64,000 nucleotides of DNA, taken from the NCBI GenBank assembly GCA_016703645.1, contig JADJBR010000007.1, positions 1,302,001 to 1,366,000 of the forward strand, in the 5' to 3' direction. The translations under genes and the position numbers were made by a program. Positions 28,315-40,245 of the stretch are shown here, in pieces. Origin of the DNA: Zoogloea sp. (GTDB lineage: Bacteria > Pseudomonadota > Gammaproteobacteria > Burkholderiales > Rhodocyclaceae). The notes under the pieces are model-generated. The model did not search any database. It saw only the letters and a list, made by a program, of their open reading frames with translations, and was not told the origin of the DNA. How positions within the stretch are numbered: position 1 is the first letter of the stretch; the number at the start of each line of letters is the position of its first letter.

Positions 28315-28932
28315 ATGCCCGGCAACACCGCCGTCGAAGCTGCCATCACCCGTTTCGGCTTCTATCCCCTCGCCCCCCGCGCACCGCGCCCGACACCGGA
28401 CGCCCTGCGCCAGCAGGCCGCCCAGGCCGGAATTGCCTTGCCCGAAGCCTTCATCGCGTTTTCGAGCGAGCACGGTGCGGGCGCCTTCGAGCAGCGGGTG
28501 GGCGTGGCCCTGCCTGCCGGCTGCCCCCTGGGGCCGTTCTTCATCGTGGACATCCTCTACGCGGCCGGCGCCCCAGAAGACTGGGACGCCCTGGCCCTTC
28601 GCGACGACACCTACGACGGCCGCCTGCCCCTCGCCGCCCTCCCCATCGCCACCGACCCCGGCGGCAACCTGCTCCTGCTGACGCCGGAGAGCGGCGCCAT
28701 CTACGCCTGGGACCACGAACACCTGGAACTCGATGACGCCGCCCTCGACCACAGGGTGGCCGACCTGGCCGCCGACGGTGTGCCGGTGGACGAGCACGAC
28801 ATCGACCAGCTAGTGCTCATGTGGGAAGAGCGCCACCCCGGACAGGTGGCCAACCCGACCGGGCATGGCAACCTGTACCCGGTGGCGGAATCGTATGAGG
28901 GGTTGTTGGGGGGGATGCGGGTGGCGGGGTAG
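28315..28932 (+). CDS. SMI1/KNR4-family immunity protein
   Basis: The 205-residue protein starts 13 bp after the WHH nuclease gene, behind an AGGAGA site. It shows the SMI1/KNR4 pattern: LPEAFIAFSSEHGAGAF (the usual LP..y..f....nG), then GPFFIVDILY, LPIATDPGGNLLLL and GAIYAWDHE. SMI1/KNR4 proteins are common immunity partners of HNH and other nuclease toxins. Placement next to a WHH nuclease cargo suggests it protects the producer. An in-frame GTG at 28291 overlaps the toxin gene; the ATG is preferred for its ribosome binding site. It is the last plus-strand gene before the convergent DGR island. Confidence 0.82.
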   Translation: MPGNTAVEAAITRFGFYPLAPRAPRPTPDALRQQAAQAGIALPEAFIAFSSEHGAGAFEQRVGVALPAGCPLGPFFIVDILYAAGAPEDWDALALRDDTYDGRLPLAALPIATDPGGNLLLLTPESGAIYAWDHEHLELDDAALDHRVADLAADGVPVDEHDIDQLVLMWEERHPGQVANPTGHGNLYPVAESYEGLLGGMRVAG

Positions 28933-28977
28933 CGGTGTGGGATGCGAGAACCCCTAAGCTTTTTTCGACTTCCCCAC

Positions 28978-29871
28978 TCACCCGCCGGCGTCGCTGCCCG
29001 CAGCCTGGCCGGCGCGCTCCGCTTGCGCCTGCCCGTCCGCGCGCCGCGCCGCCTCCTGCCCTGCCGGGCCTGGCCTTTGACCTGGGGCAAGGCGGAAGCC
29101 AAGAATGATGCTGCGCACGTCCGGCTCGAGCCTGCGCCGGTAGGCAGCGCGGCAGTAGCGGCCGTCGTCGTCCCACGACCCGCCGCGCAGCACGCGGTAG
29201 ACGCCCTGCGGCGGGCCGGGCGGGTCGATCTGCGGGCCTTCGGGATAGTCGCCGTACCAGTCGGCGCACCATTCGTAGACGTTGCCGTGCATCTCGTACA
29301 GCCCCCACGGGTTGGGCGGCAGGGATTTGACCGGGACGGTATGCTCCCGATACAGGCCTTTCTTTCCGTCGGCGTAGGGGTACTCACCGTTGTAGTTGAC
29401 CTGATCCGGGGTGATGTTCTTGCCGAAGGAGAACGGGGTGGTCGTGCCCGCGCGGCAGGCGTTTTCCCACTGGGCTTCGCTGGGCAGGCCCGCGGCCAGG
29501 CCGGGCACCAATTCGTTGAGGCGATAGAGGAAGGTCTGGACGTCGTCCCAACTCACATGTTCAACCGGGTTGGCCGGGTCGTCCTTGAAGCGGCTCGGGT
29601 TGTCGCCCATCACCGCCTGCCACAGGGCCTGGGTGCAGGCGGTATCCGCCAGCCAGTAGCCGCGGCTCAGGGTGACTTCGTGCTGGGTTTCGTTGCCGAA
29701 ACGATCCACCTCGCCCTCCGGCGACCCCATCAGGAAAGTCCCCGGTTGAATCCAGCGGAAGGTCTGCTTCACGCCGTTCAGGTTCAGCGTCGCCGCCAGC
29801 CCCCACTCGGCGTCTTCTTCCCACTCGCTCGCCCAGGGCGGCGGAAAGGGATCGGGCAGCACAAAGCTCAT
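28978..29871 (-). CDS. DGR target protein 1: FGE-sulfatase/C-type-lectin-fold protein with variable repeat
   Basis: The 297-residue protein is almost wholly an FGE-sulfatase domain (formylglycine-generating-enzyme fold, a C-type-lectin variant): [78 protein letters not shown] and LGFRLAP. The variable repeat covers residues about 222-263. FGE enzymes use a Cys pair five residues apart in this region; only one is present, so it should bind ligand rather than oxidise sulfatases. The tail ([18 protein letters not shown]) is nearly identical to that of target 2. ATG 29871 gives MSFVLPDPF; an upstream in-frame ATG at 29922 is less likely. No signal peptide is visible. Confidence 0.88.
29082..29206 (-). 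repeat. DGR variable repeat VR1
   Basis: This 125-bp segment aligns without gaps to the template repeat at 30026-30150. I count 14 mismatches, all at positions where the template coding strand has A. None of the C, G or T template positions differ. In protein terms the Asn-rich template string [17 protein letters not shown] becomes [17 protein letters not shown] here. The downstream border (CTTGCCCCAG, then GTCAAAGG against CTCAAAAG in the template) is the expected IMH/IMH* type boundary. Confidence 0.93.
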
Positions 29872-30025
29872 GCCACCTCCCGATAGCGCCGGCCCGGCGG
29901 GCTTTCGGCCGTGCTGCTGCACGACCTACTCACGCGCCGGGTGGCCTTGGGTTTTTGCCACGGCCCGTGGGGGCGCCGCAGACTGGATGATCGTCTGGTC
30001 AAAGGCGGAGTCTCCTGCTTTTGAG

Positions 30026-30150
30026 CTGGGGCAAGGCGGAAGCCAAGATTGTTGTTGCGCTCGTCCGGCTCGTTCCTGTTCCGGTTGGCAGCGCGGCAGT
30101 TGCGGCCGTTGTTGTTCCACGACCCGCCGCGCAGCACGCGGTTGACGCCC
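30026..30150 (-). repeat. DGR template repeat (TR)
   Basis: The 125-bp template lies directly downstream of the reverse transcriptase stop (30158) on the same strand. Translated, it gives [20 protein letters not shown], then [18 protein letters not shown], full of AAC (Asn) codons, the classic DGR design that lets adenine mutagenesis reach many residues. It has 27 adenines on the coding strand; 20 of them differ in at least one of the two variable repeats. It is probably transcribed as RNA and copied by the RT. The 154 bp between TR and target gene 1 hold no other gene that I can support. Confidence 0.93.
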
Positions 30151-30157
30151 ATGACGA

Positions 30158-31177
30158 TCACCCGCGCCCATCGTCGTACAGGCAGGGGTGACGGCGCAAG
30201 TCTTCCCGGCGCCACGCGGCGGCATCGGCGGGCAGCATGGGTGCCAGCACCGCGGCGTAGCCCTGCTGGAGCTGCAGGGCGTCGACCTGCCCGCTTGCCC
30301 AGGCAGTCTCCCACCCAGCCCGCAGGACGCGGTAGCGGCGCTGCTTGCGTCGGGTGAGGCGCAAGGTGCCCGGCAGAATGCGGTAGCCACAGAAGGTGAT
30401 GCCCAAGCCGCTGCGCTGGACACGCACATCCGGCTTGAGGGCCAGCCCCCGCTCGGCGGCCAGCCAGGCAGCCAGATCGCCGCGCACGGCCCGCACCGCG
30501 GCCCGGCTGTCGCACCACCACACGATGTCGTCCATGTAGCGCACGCAGGCCCGAACGGCGGGGTTGGCGAGCAGACGCCGGTCGGCGCCATCCAGATAAA
30601 AATTGGCAAAGTGCTGGGAGGTGAGCGCACCAATCGGCAGCCCGCAGCCAGGGCTGGCGGCATAGGCGTCGATGATCCGATCGAGCAGCGCGAGAAAGCC
30701 CGCCCCCTTGAAGCGCCGCGCCAGCAACGCCTTGAGCACGTCGTGACGGATCGACGGAAAGTACGCCGCCACATCCACCTGCCCGTACCACGGGTAGCGG
30801 CGCAGGCACTGCTGCACCCGCCGCACCGCCGCGTGGCTGCCGCGCCCGGGTCGGCAGGCAAAGCTGCTGTCGGCAAGGCTACGCTCGAACACGGCTTCGA
30901 CACGGTTGAGGATGGCGTGGTGAAGCACCCGGTCTTCAAAGCAGGCGGCATGGATGCGCCTGAGCTTGGGGTCGTGGATGAGGAATTCCCGAAACGCCCC
31001 CTTGGGCACCGTGCCGGCCAGAATGCCCGCTGAAAGGCGGGCCAGGCTGCCGTCCAGATCGGCGAGAAAGGCCTGCACCTCGGGCCGCGTGCGCTTGCCC
31101 CGTGCGGCCTTCCAGGTGGCGAGCACGAGATTGTCGCGGGCGGCGATCTCGTCAAGGCTGACCGGGGTGCGCTTCAT
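30158..31177 (-). CDS. DGR reverse transcriptase
   Basis: The 339-residue RT has the palm motifs in order: [16 protein letters not shown] (motif A region), [19 protein letters not shown] (about residues 183-201) and [10 protein letters not shown] with catalytic YMDD near 214. The Ser-Gln in motif 4 (GxxxSQ) separates DGR RTs from group II intron and retron enzymes, which usually have SP there. There is no maturase or endonuclease domain, and the length suits a DGR RT. The start overlaps the HRDC gene by 26 bp and the stop is 7 bp from the TR. It makes mutagenised cDNA from TR RNA for transfer into VR1 and VR2. Confidence 0.95.
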
Positions 31178-31655
31178 GATCCACCGCGGCAGGCTGCCCC
31201 GCCCCCGGCGTCAGCCGGGCCAGGGCGGCGAGGAAGACCTCGCCAAATTTATCCACCCGCGCCTCGCCCACGCCCTCGATGGCGCCCAGCCCCTGGGCCG
31301 TGGCCACCCGGCGCTGCACCATCGCGGCCAGTTGCTCGTTGGTGAAAATGGCGTAGGCGGGCACGCCCTCGCGGTCCGCCAGCTGCTTGCGCAGGCGGCG
31401 CAGCTCGGAATACACGGCAAAGTCGGCTTCGCCGAGCACCTCGCGGTAGTCCACCCGCTCCCGCTTGCCCTGCCCCGGGAAAGCCGGCGCCGCGCCCTCC
31501 ACCCAGGTCACGCACACCGCCCAGAAGCTGTCGACGCCCCGATCCACGAAATGCCGATCCGAGGCCACGATGCGGTGCTGGGCGCAGAAGGCGTTGAGGG
31601 CGTCCTGGGCGGCGTCGGGGTCGAAGGCGGGGATGGTGAGAAAGTGGAATCTCAT
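31152..31655 (-). CDS. HRDC-domain DGR accessory protein
   Basis: This 167-residue protein has an N-terminal domain (FHFLTIPAFDPDAAQDALNA, then SFWAVCVTWVEG) and a C-terminal HRDC domain (YSELRRLRKQLADREGVPAY, AIFTNEQLAAM, LGAIEGVGEARVDKFGEVFL). HRDC domains bind nucleic acid in RecQ and RNase D. In DGRs an HRDC protein can occupy the place of the usual Avd accessory, and no Avd-like gene is seen here. The ATG overlaps the stop of target gene 2 (ATGA), and the end overlaps the RT start. Co-translation with the RT is therefore likely. Confidence 0.85.
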   Translation of the reverse strand: MRFHFLTIPAFDPDAAQDALNAFCAQHRIVASDRHFVDRGVDSFWAVCVTWVEGAAPAFPGQGKRERVDYREVLGEADFAVYSELRRLRKQLADREGVPAYAIFTNEQLAAMVQRRVATAQGLGAIEGVGEARVDKFGEVFLAALARLTPGAGQPAAVDHEAHPGQP

Positions 31656-34600
31656 GGCTTGTTGCTCCTTTTTTTGCTGCCACGTTTCGTGCCCCGCCCG
31701 CCGGCGTCGCTGCCCGCAGCCTGGCCGGCGCGCTCCGCTTGCGCCTGCCCGTCCGCGCGCCGCGCCGCCTCCTGCCCTTCCGGGCCTGGCCTTTGACCTG
31801 GGGCAAGGCGGAAGCCAAGATTGTTGCCGCGCTCGCCCGGCCCGTACCTGCCCCGGAGGGCAGCGCGGCAGTAGCGGCCGAAGTTGAACCACGACCCGCC
31901 GCGCAGCACGCGGTCGACGCCCTCCGGAGGGCCGGACGGGTCGGTCTGCGGGCCTTCGGGATAGTCGCCGTACCAGTCGGCGCACCATTCGTGGACGTTG
32001 CCGTGCATTTCGTACAGCCCCCACGGGTTGGGCGGGAGAGATTTGACCGGGACGGTGCGCTTCCGGTACTCGCCCTTTTCTCCACCGGCGTAGGGGTAGT
32101 CGCCGGTGTAGTTGACCTGCGCCGGGGTGATGTTCTTGCCGAAGGAGAACGGCGTGGCCGTCCCCGCCCGGCAGGCGTTTTCCCACTGGGCTTCGCTGGG
32201 CAGGCCCGCGGCCAGGCCAGGCACCAGATCGTTGAGGCGATCGAGGAAGGTCTGAACGTCGTCCCAGCTCACCTGCTCCACCGGGTTGGCCGGGTCGTAC
32301 TTAAAGCTGCTTGGGTTGTCGCCCATCACCGCCTGCCACAGGGCCTGGGTGCACGCGGTATCCGCCAGCCAGTAGCCGCGGGTGAGGGTGACTTCGTGCT
32401 GGGTTTCGTTGTCGGATCGATCCACCTCGCCTTCCGGCGAGCCCATCTGGAAGGTGCCGGGGGCAATCCAGCGGCAGCGCTGCGTGACGGTGGAGGATTG
32501 CCCTTGCACATCGAATTCGGCCCAAAACCCCAGAGCATCCGAGCCATAGCGCACCGCCCATGGAGGAACGGGTACTGCCAAGCTCGCCAGCCCCGTATGC
32601 GGCAAATCCTGAAGATCCCACCACGCACCATGGGGAAGCATCCAACCCGGTGAGGCCTCCCCGTAAGCGCGAATCGCTCCCAATGCCCCAGGTACCGACT
32701 CGCTTTCATCTACCGGCCGATTGAGTCGTGCTTTGATTTCCGATTCGTCCGGAGCCATGCTGCCTTTTTGCACCTTGCGCAAACTGACGAGCCGGGGGTA
32801 AATCCATCGCAACCTCCGCCCATCAGGGCAGACAACTTCGAAATCCCCATCGGCAAACCTAACTGAACGCGCCCACGCCGGCCGCTCGAACGGCTCAATC
32901 ACCACCTCCCGACGTCGCGTAATAATCCTGTAGGCCCGCGCGCCGGAAAGAGACAAGACCCTGCCCGGCATCAGCAACTGCCCGCTGTCCACGTCGCGAG
33001 CGTCAAGGGGTGCAATGCGCATGGGCAACTCATCCTCCAGGTTGCGGATGAGCGCCGAAGGCACCAGGGATGAAAGCGGAGCCTGCACCAGCTCCAGGCG
33101 CAACTCCGTGCCACCACCCTTGGTTGGCTTGGATGCTGCAAGGAGGTGCAGGGCAAGGGAGTGGGTCTGATGGGGCTGGATCAACCACGCCAGCCGGTCC
33201 AACCGCAAGCCATCAGGCAAGCCGACCCGCCCTTCGCGAATATCGTCGGCGCGGGCCATCACCCAGGCGGTCTGCAATGCATCGTCGCCCCGCCCCACTG
33301 CGCCGGGCGCCCGCAGACTGAGACCACCGACGAAATCGCCCAGTGCTGACGACAGTTCCCTCGCCTTGACGCCATCCGGATTAGCGTAGAGGCAGCGGGC
33401 GAGATCGCTGAGCAGGGCACCGGCGGTCTGGCGATGGGCTTGCAGCTTAGCATCGTCGCCGATGAACTCCGGGCGGCACACTTCGCTGGCGAAAATGGCG
33501 TGGACCAGGGGCGAGCCTTGCGTCAGCTCCGCAAGATGATGGGCAACAAGCTTTGAAACAAGCGGAGGCTGAGCTGCCGCCAGTTGCAGCAGCTGGGCGC
33601 GGGCGGGTTCAACCGCATCCAGCGCCAGCGCACAACCCGTGCTTACGGCGCAGACACCGCCGTCCTGCCATAGCTCGACTTCAGTACCGATATCGAGGGC
33701 GGAGTCATCAATGGACGCAGCTTGCAGGGCAAAGCGCAGTTGGCGCACCAGTCGCCACGACACATGGCTATTACCGAACAATGCGGCGCGTAGCTGCACC
33801 AGCCCGTTTTGGCTGCGGGTTTGGGCCTGGTCGTTTCGGTTGCTTCGGATGTCGCCACCCAACAGGCTCAAACCGGAGCCTTCGCCCAGCAACGCGACAT
33901 CGAAGACATCCCGCAGTACGTCCGGCAGCAGCCGCACTGGCACCGGCGCCAACAACAGCGGACGAAGCCCGACGGCACCGAGCTGCCGTGCCACGGCGGC
34001 CCAGCGCCGGGGGAGCCCGGAGCTTGGTCGATAGCATCCCGCATCACTCAACACCACCACCGGGCTGCCATCGAAACGCAGGCTGGCGACCAATCCGGGG
34101 GCTTGAAGCCACTCGCCGGGCTCCCCGCCTCGCGTAACCAGCACCTCAATGCGTCGGTCCAGCAGGCGGCGGAGCTGTGCCAGCAGCGAAAGCAGATCGT
34201 CGTAAAAGGGGGCGAGCACCCCGCTCCAATCGAGCACCACCTGCACGCATCCGGGCCATTTGCGCCGATCAAGCCGCGGCAAAGGCTGCAGGCTGCGCCC
34301 GGTGGCGATGCGATCAACCGCACGGAGCAGGTCGGGGGCCAGCCCCGCCTGATAGGGGCGCAGATAGGCGCTGATAAAGCTCGTGAAACGCTCTGGGCTG
34401 ACGAGGGGGGCGTGGGGCAGCGGGATGGCTCCGCGCCCCGAGGACACGTAGCGCTGCGGGTCGAAGCTTGCTGGCTGGGCGGTAAGCCACTCGGGCGCCA
34501 CGTGCTGCCGGGGTTCCGGCGGCTTGGGGCGGTCTTCTGCCACCCCCCAGAAGATGGGGCCGAATCCGGTCGCGGGGTCTGTCGGGGCATCTGGCGGGGG

Positions 34601-34777
34601 CGCCTCGTCGCCCTTGGTGGGCGGCTGTAGCGGGTGATCGCCCCTGGCAGACTGGACTTTGGCGGTCTGCGGCTCCCGACCGAAACCCGCCACACGGCAG
34701 GCGGCCGGATGCTCCGACGCGGGCAAGGCATCCAGAATGCGGAGGATATCGGCAGCAAAGACGCGGGACTTGCTCAT
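31652..34777 (-). CDS. DGR target protein 2: vWA-like protein fused to an FGE-sulfatase-fold variable domain
   Basis: The 1041-residue protein has a variable N-terminus and a vWA-like domain at about 170-310 (VQVVLDWSGVLAPFYDDLL, then RRIEVLVTRGGEPGEW and SPVVVLSDAGCY). A long unassigned middle (about 310-760) follows, then a C-terminal FGE-sulfatase domain ([45 protein letters not shown]) that includes VR2 and ends in a basic tail. The FGE part is a close paralogue of target 1. The gene starts 2 bp after the MoxR-type ATPase stop and overlaps the HRDC gene. vWA proteins usually partner MoxR ATPases. I infer a signalling protein whose diversified FGE head senses a ligand. Confidence 0.82.
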   Translation of the reverse strand: MSKSRVFAADILRILDALPASEHPAACRVAGFGREPQTAKVQSARGDHPLQPPTKGDEAPPPDAPTDPATGFGPIFWGVAEDRPKPPEPRQHVAPEWLTAQPASFDPQRYVSSGRGAIPLPHAPLVSPERFTSFISAYLRPYQAGLAPDLLRAVDRIATGRSLQPLPRLDRRKWPGCVQVVLDWSGVLAPFYDDLLSLLAQLRRLLDRRIEVLVTRGGEPGEWLQAPGLVASLRFDGSPVVVLSDAGCYRPSSGLPRRWAAVARQLGAVGLRPLLLAPVPVRLLPDVLRDVFDVALLGEGSGLSLLGGDIRSNRNDQAQTRSQNGLVQLRAALFGNSHVSWRLVRQLRFALQAASIDDSALDIGTEVELWQDGGVCAVSTGCALALDAVEPARAQLLQLAAAQPPLVSKLVAHHLAELTQGSPLVHAIFASEVCRPEFIGDDAKLQAHRQTAGALLSDLARCLYANPDGVKARELSSALGDFVGGLSLRAPGAVGRGDDALQTAWVMARADDIREGRVGLPDGLRLDRLAWLIQPHQTHSLALHLLAASKPTKGGGTELRLELVQAPLSSLVPSALIRNLEDELPMRIAPLDARDVDSGQLLMPGRVLSLSGARAYRIITRRREVVIEPFERPAWARSVRFADGDFEVVCPDGRRLRWIYPRLVSLRKVQKGSMAPDESEIKARLNRPVDESESVPGALGAIRAYGEASPGWMLPHGAWWDLQDLPHTGLASLAVPVPPWAVRYGSDALGFWAEFDVQGQSSTVTQRCRWIAPGTFQMGSPEGEVDRSDNETQHEVTLTRGYWLADTACTQALWQAVMGDNPSSFKYDPANPVEQVSWDDVQTFLDRLNDLVPGLAAGLPSEAQWENACRAGTATPFSFGKNITPAQVNYTGDYPYAGGEKGEYRKRTVPVKSLPPNPWGLYEMHGNVHEWCADWYGDYPEGPQTDPSGPPEGVDRVLRGGSWFNFGRYCRAALRGRYGPGERGNNLGFRLAPGQRPGPEGQEAARRADGQAQAERAGQAAGSDAGGRGTKRGSKKRSNKP
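31798..31922 (-). repeat. DGR variable repeat VR2
   Basis: This 125-bp segment aligns without gaps to the template repeat. I count 15 mismatches, again all at template adenines. It encodes [20 protein letters not shown], then [18 protein letters not shown], differing from both the template and VR1. It lies at residues about 952-993 of the vWA-like/FGE protein. The border downstream (CCCCAGGTCAAAGG) is shared with VR1 but not with the template. Confidence 0.93.
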
Positions 34778-34779
34778 AC

Positions 34780-35796
34780 TCAGCGATGCCGTCCGCCGCC
34801 CTTGTTCAGCGCCAGTTGCTTGAGTTGCTTCAGCCGTTCCTTGAGCTTGCTAGATGGCGTAGCGGCAAGCACTTTGATCATGTCGAGGAATTCGGAGGTG
34901 CCAGGCAGGTAGCGCCCCGTGTCAGCCAGACGTTCGCGGGCGTCGGCCACATAGTCGGCAGCCTGTTTCATGACGTCCTCCGAGCAGCGCCCCTGCCACT
35001 CGGGGGCCGCCTGATGGCGGACGCCAACCTTAACAAGCCATCTGATCAGATCTTCCCGTTCATCGGGCAGCTCCAGCCGATGAACCAGACAGCGCCGCAG
35101 AAAAGCGTGGGGCAACTCCCGTTCTTCGTTGGTCGTGATGATCACCAGCGGCCGGGTCGCTTCCGAACAGGAAATCTCGGTACCCCCATAGGGTTCGCGA
35201 AACCCCAGGTTGGCAAGCACTTCCAACATGGCGTTGGGGAGGTCGGGATCGGCCTTGTCGATCTCGTCGATCAACAACACGACCCGGCCGGATTCGGGGT
35301 TCCATTTTTCAGGCGGGGTTCCAGGCCCGACCAGCTTGTGTTTGCGCTCTTGATTAACCTCCTCGAGCCGGGTCTGGGCGCTTCTCCAGGCGTAGGCCCA
35401 CCACAAAGGCCCCGGCAGCAGGTAAGCACGTTCTTCCAGAAGGGCGCGATCCTCCTTGGTCACCTGCGCGTCCGCCAGGCGCGCCACCGCGTCGAAACGC
35501 CATTTAAGATCGGTGGGCTCGGTACGACCGTCGATCACCACCGACACAAAGGGCCGCCCGGCCGCAGCGGCAGCCGCCCGAGCCGTCTCGCTCTTGCCCG
35601 TGCCCGGGTCGCCGCGGAGCAGCAAAGGCCGGCCGGTGATCTCGGCGGCGTGCAGGGCGGCGATGGTGTCGGCGTCGAAGACATGCACCGAACTGGGCCA
35701 GGTGCCCTCTTTGGGGATAAGGATGAAATCGTCGAGCGAGTAATCGGGAAGTAACGCACTGATTTTGTCTGGGCTGGAACTCCATTTATCGTTCAT
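34780..35796 (-). CDS. MoxR-type AAA+ ATPase
   Basis: The 338-residue protein shows Walker A (LLRGDPGTGKSETARA, near residue 57), Walker B (VVLLIDEIDKADPDLPNAML, near 174), sensor 1 (VIITTNEERELP) and an arginine-finger region (AFLRRCLVHRLELP). This arrangement is typical of MoxR ATPases, which remodel partners carrying vWA domains. Its gene overlaps the TIR gene by 11 bp and is followed at 2 bp by the vWA-like DGR target, so the three form one operon. Likely role: ATP-dependent switch between sensor and effector. Family call firm, role inferred. Confidence 0.88.
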   Translation of the reverse strand: MNDKWSSSPDKISALLPDYSLDDFILIPKEGTWPSSVHVFDADTIAALHAAEITGRPLLLRGDPGTGKSETARAAAAAAGRPFVSVVIDGRTEPTDLKWRFDAVARLADAQVTKEDRALLEERAYLLPGPLWWAYAWRSAQTRLEEVNQERKHKLVGPGTPPEKWNPESGRVVLLIDEIDKADPDLPNAMLEVLANLGFREPYGGTEISCSEATRPLVIITTNEERELPHAFLRRCLVHRLELPDEREDLIRWLVKVGVRHQAAPEWQGRCSEDVMKQAADYVADARERLADTGRYLPGTSEFLDMIKVLAATPSSKLKERLKQLKQLALNKGGGRHR

Positions 35797-37045
35797 TGAC
35801 CTTCCTTCCGCTATTCAGTCTCTCAATTTGTTTTAAGCACGCCCAGGCTGCACTCAGTAGCTCCCGCTCCTGCCCCTCGATTTGGTTAGCGCCATGGCCA
35901 GAGCGCACGAGAACATCTACATCGAAGTCCAAGCTCACTAACCAGACGCGTAAATCGTGAGCACTATTTCCATCTTTGGCTTGAAACGCAATCATGACTC
36001 GGGTTGAAGTGGCATCGCGTGCCATCGCGTTCAATCTAATTGACAGCGAGCGAATATTGTTCTCATCAAAAACGGGATATGCCGAACTGGCCCTGCTTGA
36101 GCTTGGCTCATGGAACTCGGGAACCGTCGCCCATAGCTGCTTTAACATACTCCACTTTTGATCCTGATTGATACCGGGGACCACCGTTCCCTGATCCAGG
36201 ACATTCTTCACGGAAAAACGCTCTGGTATATTGAACCCGCCATTTATGGAATCAATCTGTGCTCGCCGTTTTTCCTGACAGTAAGAGACTGCGAAGGCCT
36301 GTGTTTCAGCACCTCGAAGTAGAGCTGGCCTTCCATAGTTCCCCAAGGTATGCAATGTATAGCCAAGCCGAGAGACGAGATCACATGCCCCAAGACGAAA
36401 GAGCTCGGATACGATATCTACACAATCTTTCCTAAGAATTTCGACTTGGGCCAACTTAAAGCCAGAACGACTTAGCTCTTTATCCTCGTTTAATCTCGTA
36501 ATGCAAGAACGAAATTCTTCAAGTCGATCTGTCGCAATAACGCCTCGCGAATCCAAAAAGCTCACTTCCCATTTCAAACCCAGGGACTCGAGGCATTTGA
36601 GTTTGAAAAGACTCTTCAATTTCTCCAAAACATTAGCGCGACACTCGGTCGTAAGGCACTCGATACTCTTTCGACGGAGTCTTTCTGTCTGCTGAGGCAC
36701 GCGTGCTTTAATTTGATTCAGGAGTGAAGAACCTGTCTTCAGACTATCTGTCCACTCGTCCTCCGAAAATTGGAAGGAATTTACCTTCGCCAACTCTCGG
36801 ATTAACTCAGGCAATTCGCTCTCCTTGGGCATATTCGCCCCGGAAAGCAAAAGCACGTGTAATTCCGGCAGTGCTCCCCTGCGATACCGCTTAAGTGCGA
36901 GCGCTGTCTCGTTCAGCACCCAATCTTCATCGGGAAGCTTGGCCCGCTCTTCGACGCATTCCAACCACCCCGGCTCAATCAAGATCAGGATCAGATGTGC
37001 GCGCTTCAGCGCACTTTTGATTTCGGCGGTGAACTTTGTGCCTAG

Positions 37046-38432
37046 CAGGGTGTTGAAAATCTCCGCCTCACCTTCGGTCTTCCAGCGGCCTGGAAAAAAT
37101 TACGCTGGAGCAAACCCGAGTAGATCCGTCTCAATGACGATTCGGACCGTGTTTCCCGCCGATGGTGCAAGGGTAATTGAGCGGCGCGGGCGTCGCAGCA
37201 AGTACCACCTATTCAATAACGACTTCCGCAATGCCCGTGCAGCAATGGCACCTCTCAATCACGATGCCAGCAAATTGCCCAGCCGCGTCAGGTTGTAGGC
37301 GGCGAAATTCAGCAGGGCGTGAGCGCGAATCGTCTCCAGGCCGCGTGCCATCAAACGACGCAATGTACCGATGTCCTTCGCCCAGCCAAACGCCTCTTCG
37401 ATCATCTTGCGACGACGCAGGCTGACTGCATACGCTTCGGTGACCTTTATCTCCGAAGGCACGGCACTGCCCTTGGTCTTGGCAGCCACATGCGGCAGCA
37501 CCCCAATCGCCCGAGCGCAGCGATGAAATCAGCCGTGTCGTAACCCCGGTCGGCCGCCAGTGTCGGCTGGCGCGTCGCATCGGCCGGCTTGACGGTGCGT
37601 TTGACCATCACCAGCGCGGCCTCGCGCTCGGCGGTGCCGGTGGCCTGCGTGGTATGCACATCGACGATCAGACCGTGCCGGTTCTCCGCCAGAGCATGGG
37701 TCGTGAAGCTCAGATAGGCGCCTGCGCCGCCTTTGCTGGCAAGCAAGGCTTCCGGGTCGGTGCGTGAGACGTGCGTTGCGTTCGAGCGCTTCTGGCCCCG
37801 GAAGTCCACCTCGGCGTTACGGCCTTGATCCGGCCCGGGCGGCTCATCCGAGCCGTCGCGTGCAGCCAGACTCTTGTGTGAAGCCCAAGCCCGCAGCAGC
37901 GAACCGTCAACGCTGAAATGTTCGTCCGAGACCAGCTCGGCCCACTGCCCGATCGCCACCACGCCCGTGAAGAACTCGCGCATCACGCTTTCCTTGAGCA
38001 GTCGCTCCCGATTAGCTGAGAAGCTTGAGTGGTCCCACACCGCCTCGTCCAGCGTCAGGCCCACGAACCAGCGATACATCATGTTGAAATCGATATGCTC
38101 GACCAACGCCCGCTCTGAACGAATCGAGAATAGACATTGCAACAACGAGGCGCGCAGAAGACGCTCCGGCGCAATCGACGGACGGCCACCTTCGGCATAC
38201 AGAGAGTCGAAAGTCGGCGACATCGAACGGAGTACCAAATCGGCCAGCACTTTCACCCGACGCAGCGGATGCTCGGTCGGAATGCGCTCCTCAATATTGA
38301 CGTAGCTAAACAAGGCGTTCTGTTTGTGGTCGGGGCCGCGCATCGGAGTATTACTGGTTCGCTAATTTGAATGGAATTATAACAAGACCGAAACCCTTGC
38401 GGTCCTTGGCTCTGGGGTAAATCAACACCCTG
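37046..38432 (-). mobile_element. IS5-superfamily insertion sequence with CTAG target duplication
   Basis: The 1387-bp element has 11-bp perfect terminal inverted repeats (CAGGGTGTTGA at 37046 and its complement ending at 38432). It is flanked on both sides by CTAG (37042-37045 and 38433-38436), consistent with a 4-bp target duplication. It carries one transposase gene on the minus strand. Removing the element and one CTAG rejoins the TIR domain in frame at that junction, which proves the boundaries. IS5 superfamily is assigned from the transposase type and the CTAG target. Confidence 0.9.
37259..38343 (-). pseudogene. IS5-superfamily DDE transposase, frameshifted
   Basis: The first frame starts at ATG 38343 with MRGPDHKQNALFSYVNIEER and contains GRPSIAPERLLRASLLQCLF, YRWFVGLTLDEAVWDHSSFS, and the DDE-region signature DEHFSVDGSLLRAWASHKS. 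At a C4 run (37501-37504) the reading must shift by one base to continue into VLPHVAAKTKGSAVPSEIKV and RRRKMIEEAFGWAKDIGTLR (the catalytic Glu region), ending at 37259. A single lost base explains the break. Such transposases are normally one uninterrupted ORF of about 360 residues. The element is therefore either dead or misread at this homopolymer. Confidence 0.85.
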
Positions 38433-38739
38433 CTAGGGGGATGGAAGTCTCCTTGATATCCAGGAAGACCCGCTCTGGCCCCAGTTCTCGCGCCAACGCA
38501 TCGTGCAAGCGAGTGGCATTGCCTGCCGAGTGAGATCTGCGATAGCTGATAAACGCCCCACCGTGGAACTTGCTCAACTGCCCCATCAGCCCCCCTTAGT
38601 GTACGAGATCCGACATCGCGCCGTGTTGACGAGAGAATATGGCAGGCGGGTGGCAGGTGTCCAACGGGTTTGCAGGCTCCGTGCCCGGTTATTGAGGCGA
38701 GGCGTCTGACGTAGTTGTGTCCGCGATGAATGGCGTTGC

Positions 38740-38773
38740 GGTGGCCGCGCATCAGCGGGGATGCGTGGCCACC
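38740..38773 (-). terminator. hairpin downstream of the membrane protein gene
   Basis: GGTGGCCGCGCAT (38740-38752) pairs with ATGCGTGGCCACC (38761-38773) with one mismatch and an 8-base loop. It lies 36 bp past the stop of the minus-strand membrane protein gene and upstream of the TIR operon. There is no clear T-tract, so it is only a probable terminator or 3-prime stabiliser. Confidence 0.4.
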
Positions 38774-38808
38774 GGAGAGAGATAGAGAGAAGAGCGATCG
38801 GCTCAGGC

Positions 38809-40245
38809 TTATTTCTGCTTTCCGGAGCCCGCGGCCGCAGGGGGCTTCAAACCCACGCTGCGCAGATTGACCAGCTTGCCAAGCAGGTCAAACCAGAAAG
38901 GCGCGCCAAAGCCAGCCATCAAGGCCGTCGCAAGCCAACCGAACAGGGCGGGGAAAAAGTCGATCTGGCGGGCGACGTCGCGGATCCAGCCCACCTTGGG
39001 AAGGAGCGAACGCACCTTGATCAGCGCGGCGTCGAGCTCATGCGCATAGTCCCGCTGCTGCTTGAGGTGGGCTTGCAAGGCATCCAGGGGCGCTTTGGAG
39101 TCGGGCGCGCGGATGGCGGCGGCGAGGAGACGGCCGAGCTGGGGTGACAGGGTGCGCCCCTGGATGCCAGAAGGCACGCCACTGTCGATGAACTTGAGGA
39201 TGGTCACGTCGCGTTCGGCACCCTGCGCCCCATCGATGCGGCGCAGCCAGTCGCACAGGGCTTCGTCGGCCCTGGTTGCCGGCACGGGCGCAGAGGTGGG
39301 GGTCGGGCAATCGGTTCGGTCAGACGGTGTAAACAGCTCGGCAAAGACGGTTGCGCGCTTGGCGACATCGGCTTCGGTGAGGAGTTGGTAATCGAGCCGG
39401 GCTTGGTTCAGATCGTAGTAGTTGTCGGCTTGGAGCCGCTTCAAGGCCGCCCGGCTGGCGCCGCGTGCAGCGTCGTCCTTGGCCGGCTCCAGGGCGATCA
39501 CGGCTTCGACGTTCTTGTCGAGGATCGCTGCACGAACGCGGAGTGCCGAGGTGAACTCATCGAGGGTACGGCTTCCGTCGCCTGGGTTGACGCGCTGAGC
39601 GACGCCGACGACCTCGTTGCGCAAGGCCTCGTCCTGAAGGAGTCGCTGGGCGATGTAGAAGGTATCAAGGTTGAAACACACGGCCAGCACGAGGGCCACG
39701 ACGATCAGGATGCTTTGGGTGGCGCGCTTGTACCAGCCAGAGGCGCGTTCCATCGCGGCGTCGAACTGGGCGGCCAGTTCCTTCTCCAGGGCCTCGACCG
39801 AGGCGACACCCTTGCTGAAGGCGCCGCTGAGGGCTTCGGAAAGCCCTTTGGGAAGGGTGGCAGCCATGGCCTCGAACTGGGCGCGCAAGGCGGTGACATC
39901 GAGCGTCTGGCCGTCGGCTTGCTTCAGTTCTTTGCGTATCAGGTCGAGCAATACCGACGCGTAGGTCTTGGACGGAATGTAGCTTGGGGCGCTCACGCCG
40001 TCGCCAAGCAACACCCTCGGCGTATGCAAAGCCTGGATGAGCCCGTGGTTGTAGAGCCGAGTGGTCCAGTTGCTGTCTTCGCTTGGGGCGTCGGATCTAT
40101 GCAGCAGGCGGGTAATGGCGTGCTTCAAACCGTACGCGCGCAGCTTCATCCAGCTCGCGCCAAACTCAACGATGAACGAGGCCGCCACGGCGGTGAGCAG
40201 GTAGAGCAGCGCAAGGCCGATGAGCAGATCGAGCAGGTTTTCCAT
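38809..40245 (-). CDS. uncharacterised multi-pass membrane protein
   Basis: The 478-residue protein has a hydrophobic N-terminal helix (LLDLLIGLALLYLLTAVAAS), a central one (SILIVVALVLAVCFNLDTF, about 178-197) and a C-terminal one (FGWLATALMAGFGAPFWFD). A charged region of some 220 residues lies between the last two. The end is Ala/Lys-rich. I do not recognise a family with assigned function. It sits alone between the DGR/TIR island and a divergent LuxR-type gene, with its own hairpin downstream. Whether it belongs to the island or to the core chromosome cannot be told from sequence. Confidence 0.65.
   Translation of the reverse strand: MENLLDLLIGLALLYLLTAVAASFIVEFGASWMKLRAYGLKHAITRLLHRSDAPSEDSNWTTRLYNHGLIQALHTPRVLLGDGVSAPSYIPSKTYASVLLDLIRKELKQADGQTLDVTALRAQFEAMAATLPKGLSEALSGAFSKGVASVEALEKELAAQFDAAMERASGWYKRATQSILIVVALVLAVCFNLDTFYIAQRLLQDEALRNEVVGVAQRVNPGDGSRTLDEFTSALRVRAAILDKNVEAVIALEPAKDDAARGASRAALKRLQADNYYDLNQARLDYQLLTEADVAKRATVFAELFTPSDRTDCPTPTSAPVPATRADEALCDWLRRIDGAQGAERDVTILKFIDSGVPSGIQGRTLSPQLGRLLAAAIRAPDSKAPLDALQAHLKQQRDYAHELDAALIKVRSLLPKVGWIRDVARQIDFFPALFGWLATALMAGFGAPFWFDLLGKLVNLRSVGLKPPAAAGSGKQK

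What the first reader, a model, noticed from the sequence alone, without database searches (positions are those of the whole stretch)
28978..31922. Diversity-generating retroelement with strict adenine-only variation at two target genes
A 125-bp template repeat (30026-30150) next to a DGR-type RT aligns gap-free to two variable repeats. I count 14 mismatches in VR1 and 15 in VR2, all at template adenines; 20 of the 27 template adenines vary and no other base does. This is the diagnostic trace of mutagenic retrohoming, and the two VRs differ from each other, so both have been rewritten.
Basis: partly seen in the sequence, partly recalled or inferred. Interest (0 to 1): 0.92.

Follow-up and report, generated by a model that had tools for sequence, protein, structure and literature searches.

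The report
Two-target diversity-generating retroelement, MoxR type
This is a bacterial cassette that copies a fixed RNA template into two sensor-like genes while scrambling only the template's adenines; the type is known, but its RNA spacer matches the genes it rewrites better than its own template, which could help explain why copying runs one way.

Summary
Confirmed. TR 30026-30150 (minus strand) aligns without gaps to VR1 and VR2; 29 of 29 mismatches fall on template adenines. RT, HRDC accessory protein, TR, two C-type-lectin (FGE-fold) targets and a MoxR-like ATPase form a compact array. This matches the layout published for DGRs of RT clade 5A in multicellular bacteria (Dore et al. 2024, passages read): a new member of a known kind.

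Additions. (1) The genome has five TRs with adenine-only partners and a sixth putative one; two have a target 19 or 78 kb away. (2) The putative TIR effector gene in front of MoxR is split by an IS. (3) In 23 of 23 cassettes tested (window plus 22 relatives) the RNA spacer behind the TR is complementary to the VR 3' border, while the TR mismatches it at one constant base (0 of 23 pair); it co-varies between species (0 of 5000 permutations). Bordetella phage BPP-1 shows a 9-nt match of the same kind. A spacer-primed cDNA would be a seamless antisense copy of the VR border: a candidate basis for one-way transfer. No significant match in eight more distant phage DGRs. The core mechanistic papers were not held, so novelty of (3) is uncertain.

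The parts
30026..30150 (-). template repeat (TR), 125 nt, 27 coding-strand A; begins 7 nt after the RT stop
29082..29206 (-). variable repeat 1 (VR1), C-terminal part of target 1; 14 mismatches to TR, all at template A
31798..31922 (-). variable repeat 2 (VR2), C-terminal part of target 2; 15 mismatches to TR, all at template A
28978..29922 (-). target 1, short CLec/FGE-fold protein (ORF 314 aa; likelier start at the ATG near 29871, by comparison with the paralogue in L011)
31652..34777 (-). [not shown]
30158..31177 (-). reverse transcriptase, 339 aa, uninterrupted, YMDD present; best match by sequence among solved structures is the Bordetella phage DGR RT (8ub7, E 2e-40)
31152..31655 (-). HRDC-domain accessory protein, 167 aa; overlaps target 2 by 4 nt and the RT by 26 nt; model has an N-terminal beta-alpha-beta-beta part plus HRDC
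29997..30006 (-). spacer element GCCTTTGACC: exact reverse complement of the VR border GGTCAAAGGC; the TR's own border differs at its first base (C in TR, G in VR)
29985..29996 (-). 3' arm of a stem that would enclose the TR in the RNA
30153..30163 (-). 5' arm of the same stem (overlaps the RT 3' end)
34780..35796 (-). MoxR-like AAA ATPase (AAA_5; bpMoxR below its cut-off), 2 nt upstream of target 2
35786..37039 (-). larger piece of the gene in front of MoxR; its start matches the second half of a TIR protein's N-terminal region
38440..38586 (-). first piece of what is probably the same gene (TIR N-terminal part), separated from the rest by the IS
37041..38437 (-). insertion sequence, 16-bp perfect terminal inverted repeats, DUF772/DDE transposase in two frames; four other near-identical full copies and one partial copy in the genome

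Best explanation
A cellular DGR that diversifies two C-type-lectin sensor domains of a MoxR-ATPase conflict (defence) system. Steps: the TR RNA is reverse-transcribed by the RT with help of the HRDC protein, with random bases opposite adenines, and the cDNA replaces the VR at the 3' end of each target (imprint shown here; chemistry known from Bordetella). The rewritten lectin surface senses a ligand; the MoxR ATPase relays the signal to an effector encoded in front of it (inferred; proposed for relatives by Dore et al.). In this strain the putative TIR effector gene is split by an IS, so the diversifying half looks intact while the effector half looks disarmed. My estimates: DGR 0.97; conflict-system sensors 0.6; effector gene disrupted 0.85.
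Against: No read data, so present activity is unproven. No ligand, effector activity or anti-phage phenotype was found or tested. The TIR pieces have no Pfam match on their own. PADLOC found nothing in target 2 or the larger effector piece. RT placement in clade 5A was not tested on a tree with the published sequences.
Confidence: 0.88

Rival explanations
1. A dead DGR: RT no longer expressed or active (the IS sits at the front of the apparent operon), and the A-only differences are an old imprint.
For: IS inside the first gene of the apparent operon; a same-genus genome keeps only an RT remnant next to target-1 tail sequence; other loci of this genome have no RT or an RT in two frames.
Against: RT, HRDC and both targets are uninterrupted ORFs; 0 of 98 non-A positions have drifted although the upstream flanks differ by 10.8%; the IS copies are 99-100% identical, so the insertion is probably recent.
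Confidence: 0.2
2. The diversified lectins are surface adhesins or ligand binders unrelated to defence.
For: CLec/FGE domains serve many roles; no defence test exists here. Localisation was not examined.
Against: Tight MoxR linkage and TIR, trypsin-like or CHAT-like genes in the same slot in relatives; published association with conflict systems.
Confidence: 0.25
3. VR1 and VR2 are ordinary paralogous repeats diverging by point mutation.
For: The two targets are 90% identical over 793 nt.
Against: All 29 mismatches lie on one base type of the TR (p about 3e-23).
Confidence: 0.005

Closest known systems
DGR loci of RT clade 5A, e.g. Thiohalocapsa PB-PSB1 DGR 8 (Dore et al. 2024, PMC10907252; outline and passages read)
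   Same: MoxR-like ATPase directly upstream of a long target whose N-terminal extension has no predicted domain; a second, short CLec-only target; effector/adapter genes nearby; several DGRs per genome, some degenerate.
   Different: Host here is probably of the genus of a record titled Zoogloea sp. MAG.512; effector gene split by an IS; HRDC accessory (the accessory type of DGR 8 was not seen in the passages read).
Treponema denticola DGR with TvpA (PMC4891356; passages on HRDC read)
   Same: HRDC accessory gene overlapping the RT gene; TvpA is the closest solved variable domain.
   Different: There the accessory gene lies between TR and RT, here TR follows the RT; targets reported as lipoproteins; MoxR not mentioned in the passages seen.
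Bordetella phage BPP-1 DGR (AY029185.2, L060)
   Same: Adenine-specific TR-to-VR imprint; RT relative; spacer complementary to the VR border rather than the TR border.
   Different: Another accessory protein (Avd, recalled; annotated there as bbp7) instead of HRDC; TR before the RT; phage tail-protein target; spacer element 9 nt long at spacer nt 48-56.
VMAP ternary conflict systems (Kaur et al. 2020, PMC7159879; passages read)
   Same: MoxR ATPase coupled to DGR-diversified FGS/CLec proteins.
   Different: No vWA domain recognised by Pfam in target 2 or its 17 relatives; no VMAP domain recognised in the window proteins scanned.

Membership tests
Diversity-generating retroelement | gap-free TR/VR pair with mismatches confined to template adenines | tested here: met
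   29 of 29 mismatches, 0 of 98 non-A sites in each VR
Diversity-generating retroelement | adjacent intact RT related to DGR RTs | tested here: met
   RVT_1; best PDB match by sequence is the Bordetella DGR RT, E 2e-40, YMDD aligned
Diversity-generating retroelement | accessory protein gene | tested here: met
   HRDC domain, E 2e-18; model matches HRDC structures
Diversity-generating retroelement | VR in the C-terminal part of a C-type-lectin-fold target | tested here: met
   [not shown]
Diversity-generating retroelement | hairpin/cruciform just downstream of the VR | not tested
   no dedicated test of the VR downstream region was run
Diversity-generating retroelement | mutagenic retrohoming in living cells | not testable with these tools
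   no reads or cultures
Clade 5A DGR / MoxR conflict system (Dore et al.) | MoxR-like ATPase immediately upstream of the long target | tested here: met
   34780-35796, 2 nt before target 2; AAA_5 E 7.5e-15, bpMoxR 21.7 bits, below its cut-off of 27
Clade 5A DGR / MoxR conflict system (Dore et al.) | one short CLec-only target plus one long target with an unrecognised N-terminal extension | tested here: met
Clade 5A DGR / MoxR conflict system (Dore et al.) | effector or adapter gene at the locus | tested here: inconclusive
   two pieces of a TIR-like gene on either side of an IS; no Pfam match for the pieces alone
Clade 5A DGR / MoxR conflict system (Dore et al.) | RT branches inside clade 5A | not tested
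   published clade sequences were not fetched; own tree only shows T1 and T2 as sisters within the HRDC-type group
VMAP ternary system | vWA domain | tested here: inconclusive
   no Pfam vWA in 18 members; hhalign against two vWA sequences no better than shuffled controls; N-terminal domain not folded alone

The most novel reading that the evidence does not exclude
The spacer RNA of the DGR is a target guide as well as a primer. It is written to match the variable gene's border, not the template's: the spacer-primed cDNA, RNA part included, is a seamless antisense copy across the VR 3' border, while one conserved template base (C opposite spacer C or A) spoils the match to the TR. This would help make homing one-way (VR rewritten, TR spared), let one TR find targets tens of kilobases away, and leave an RNA-primed DNA on the target strand that looks like an Okazaki fragment to the host's repair enzymes (this last step is pure inference, prompted by the lagging-strand preference reported in PMC12875486).
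Probability: 0.45. Interest if true: 0.8.

Novelty: new member of a known kind. Interest (0 to 1): 0.5.

Why it matters
DGRs of this type may be a bacterial counterpart of variable immune receptors, and this genome carries several templates feeding lectin domains fused to or encoded beside TIR, STAND NTPase and MoxR proteins. More generally, how the cDNA homes into the VR is called incompletely understood (PMC12875486 passage), and the border stretch with five TR/VR mismatches is reported to set the direction of transfer in BPP-1 (PMC3240598 passage) without a stated reason in the passages seen. A spacer that matches the VR version of that border and not the TR version offers a reason and a one-base-swap test.

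Tried and rejected
Hidden vWA in the target 2 extension: the strands and the conserved Asp positions (LDWS..., LSDLG) look to me like a worn vWA, but Pfam found none in 18 members and hhalign gave no signal above shuffled controls. The structural second look was filled by the CLec domain, so the extension remains untested by fold.

Generality of the spacer/VR match. Viral set: 67 loci of a bRT scan plus 3 phage records = 70; 12 gave no A-only pair and 8 were duplicates, leaving 50. VR beats TR in 33, TR beats VR in 5, 12 ties (means 5.56 and 2.96 nt); but permuting partners gives 5.57, because motif and border are both conserved there, so this set shows no co-variation. In several of the 50 the A-only run stopped before the likely border; they were kept. 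Eight further phage DGRs (L135-L142): none above shuffled spacers; L061 and L062 neither; in some of these too the run may stop early. Other DGRs of the same genome: T3 shows 5 nt (local VR) and 7 nt (remote VR) in the narrow search, 7 and 9 nt in the wide one, against 0 (narrow) and 6 (wide) for its TR; no null was run; T4, T5 and two same-order genomes show no clear advantage of VR over TR. T6 was not tested because it has no matching VR in the stretches searched.

Rows left out of the 23-locus test (one VR per locus): L025 (TR runs to the contig end, no spacer), L030 and L044 (A-only run stops before the border), L034, L042, L043, L045, L048 (no pair found), L049 and L050 (tested). Looked at afterwards with the border set by hand (post hoc), L030 (both VRs) gives 5 nt for VR and 0 for TR, and L044 7 nt for VR and 3 for TR (first VR; the second was not in register). 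Both also have C in TR and G in VR.

A test of an empty insertion site by the right-hand neighbour gene went nowhere: it is in only 3 of 23 genomes of the genus, the window's own included. Rfam had no match at gathering scores in 28900-38900. The TR RNA alone folds only slightly better than shuffles (z -1.6). The window RT has no relative among viral contigs by its six peptide patterns. In one search the comparison upstream of the VRs at the second locus (T2) was out of register and is not used. A profile comparison of the ORF in front of MoxR with the relatives' slot proteins gave only 4.8% probability.

Papers: Handa 2025 (PMC11995886), Handa 2018 (PMC6182149) and Naorem 2017 (PMC5703328) are not held; I saw nothing of them beyond citations, and their content here is recalled. 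Searches for a published spacer/VR match; the listings and the passages seen do not state it, which is not proof that it is unpublished.
Full report
OBSERVATION. Chance is about 3e-23. Of the 16 A-containing codons in frame none can become a stop by A changes, and the repeat can encode about 10^16 DNA or 10^15 protein variants. The two targets differ at 61 of 567 sites just upstream of the VRs, yet no non-A site inside either VR has left the template; drift alone gives about 1.4e-5. The 101 nt downstream differ at one site only, so a conversion tract or coding constraint there is possible.

RELATIVES. One scan of genome contigs gave 27 loci, by title from Gamma-, Beta- and Alphaproteobacteria, Magnetococcales and Desulfobulbaceae/Desulfocapsa. 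An A-only pair was found in 26 of 31 RT loci scanned; 21 of the 26 have a VR on both sides of the RT/TR, 5 on one side only. Over 43 pairs from 24 loci, 677 of 686 mismatches are at template A (A>G 327, A>T 256, A>C 94); the pairs had been picked by A-only runs, so this is not an unbiased estimate. Of 60 related genomes searched, the window's own included, 5 have an RT match at 1e-20, i.e. 4 of 59 others: the cassette is patchy. A same-genus genome (G014) is identical over 2222 nt to a record titled Zoogloea sp. MAG.512 and shows only an RT remnant with target-tail sequence behind it; the window's genus is therefore probably that of Zoogloea, floc-forming bacteria (habit recalled).

SEVERAL TEMPLATES IN ONE GENOME. 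Searching the genome with the TR, RT and FGE profile and comparing stretches shows five TRs with A-only partners and a sixth putative TR: T1 (window); T2, a sister cassette (RT 71% identical; RT tree support 99/96) with two VRs and 0 of 96 non-A mismatches in both; T3 with a local VR (1 of 104 non-A mismatches), a further partial match on the opposite strand, and a VR 19 kb away (3 of 104); T4 with two VRs (0 and 4 of 95) but no RT found in its 16-kb stretch; T5 with a local VR (7 of 99) and a VR 78 kb away (5 of 99); T6, TR-like and next to an RT, but with no matching VR in the stretches searched (best 26 of 102). The T3 RT lies in two frames, and the remote T3 target is split between frames. 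L018 has MoxR and two targets but no RT match nearby and no TR match longer than 19 nt. T5 has a bAvd-type accessory, so HRDC and Avd systems coexist. Other targets are fused to TIR, nSTAND1, NACHT or AAA_35/LRR domains.

EFFECTOR SLOT. In relatives the gene before MoxR is TIR (7 of 10 scanned, one below cut-off), trypsin-like (2 of 10, one below cut-off) or unmatched (1 of 10) (14 loci with MoxR were listed, 10 proteins were scanned); the T2 paralogue has a CHAT match just below cut-off. In the window an IS (37041-38437, perfect 16-bp ends; four other full copies at 99-100% identity and one partial) lies between two ORF pieces. Searched apart, the pieces match consecutive stretches (15-52 and 61-153) of one TIR protein of the same genome (E 0.003 and 1.7e-5 among 3446 ORFs), so they are most likely one TIR gene split by the IS. 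Pfam finds nothing in the pieces.

SPACER MATCHES TARGET BETTER THAN TEMPLATE. At the 3' border the TR reads ...AG|CTCA and the VR ...AG|GTCA in the window. In 41 TR/VR pairs of 24 loci the first TR base is C in 41; the first VR base is G in 36 and T in 5 (two of the five are L030, whose border was misplaced). Behind the TR the spacer contains the exact reverse complement of the VR border in 39 of 41 pairs, 5-10 nt (window: 10 nt); the other two are L030, which fits once its border is set by hand (post hoc). In the 23-locus test (one VR per locus) mean exact complementarity is 6.70 nt for VR and 2.30 for TR; 0 of 5000 permutations of partners reach it (mean 4.59, maximum 5.65); shuffled spacers give 2.48. 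Watson-Crick pairing at the first five columns is 23 of 23 each for VR; for TR it is 23, 0, 22, 23 and 17, so the template is spoilt chiefly at one base. Two loci change together there (VR T, spacer A). The columns are anchored at the own best VR match, which favours VR; the permutation is the fairer test, although it does not remove relatedness between loci. The VR border is also coding sequence, which may account for its conservation but not for the co-variation of the spacer.

A stem enclosing the TR also co-varies (mean -27.6 kcal/mol against -23.3 for permuted partners, 0 of 5000). In BPP-1 the spacer has AGGTGGTCA, complement of VR TGACCACCT across three of the five border mismatches; the TR tail has no complement of 6 nt or more. 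It ends at spacer nt 56, which I recall as the mapped priming adenosine. The five-mismatch stretch is reported to determine the direction of transfer (PMC3240598 passage). So a cDNA primed there is continuous with the VR antisense strand; in the window spacer ...CCTTTGACC plus cDNA TGGGGC... equals the plus strand next to VR1 and VR2. A held paper states that a spacer adenine primes cDNA in IMH* and that homing is not fully understood (PMC12875486, passages). Results against generality are in Tried and rejected: no significance in eight distant phage DGRs, no co-variation in the viral set, no clear sign in T4 and T5.

COMPARISON. Dore et al. 2024 (outline and passages) describe clade 5A loci with a MoxR ATPase directly upstream of a long target without a recognised vWA, plus a short CLec-only target, and propose antigen sensing. 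The window has that layout. It is therefore a new member of a known kind; the IS-split effector and the spacer/VR match are the additions.

Noticed in passing
window 388-28932, plus strand: Contractile-injection-type baseplate genes (Phage_base_V, gp25, Baseplate_J, Tail_P2_I) followed by three eCIS_core proteins, one with an Ntox4 match, one with a WHH/colicin-DNase-like end, and a SUKH-family gene after the latter; directly next to the DGR but on the opposite strand.
   Followed up: partly
window 35786-38595: IS with near-identical copies elsewhere in the genome sits between two pieces of a TIR-like gene in front of MoxR.
   Followed up: yes
L013 (G000:C4:241314-242398): TR with two VRs that differ chiefly at template A, one in a TIR-FGE protein, but no RT found nearby: possibly served in trans.
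   Followed up: partly
L014 and L017 (G000:C10:531146 and 609526): TR with a VR partner 78 kb away, in a stretch that also holds a MoxR-like gene.
   Followed up: partly
L012 and L016 (G000:C7:1521708-1520786 and 1503245-1503903): RT gene and remote target gene each lie in two frames, i.e. look broken, though the TR/VR match is still nearly perfect at non-A sites.
   Followed up: no
L018 (G000:C9:137998-142674): MoxR plus long and short FGE targets without an RT match nearby: looks like a stripped copy of the cassette.
   Followed up: no
window 36001-37000: G+C falls to 0.49 against 0.68 for the window: the effector slot looks foreign to its surroundings.
   Followed up: no
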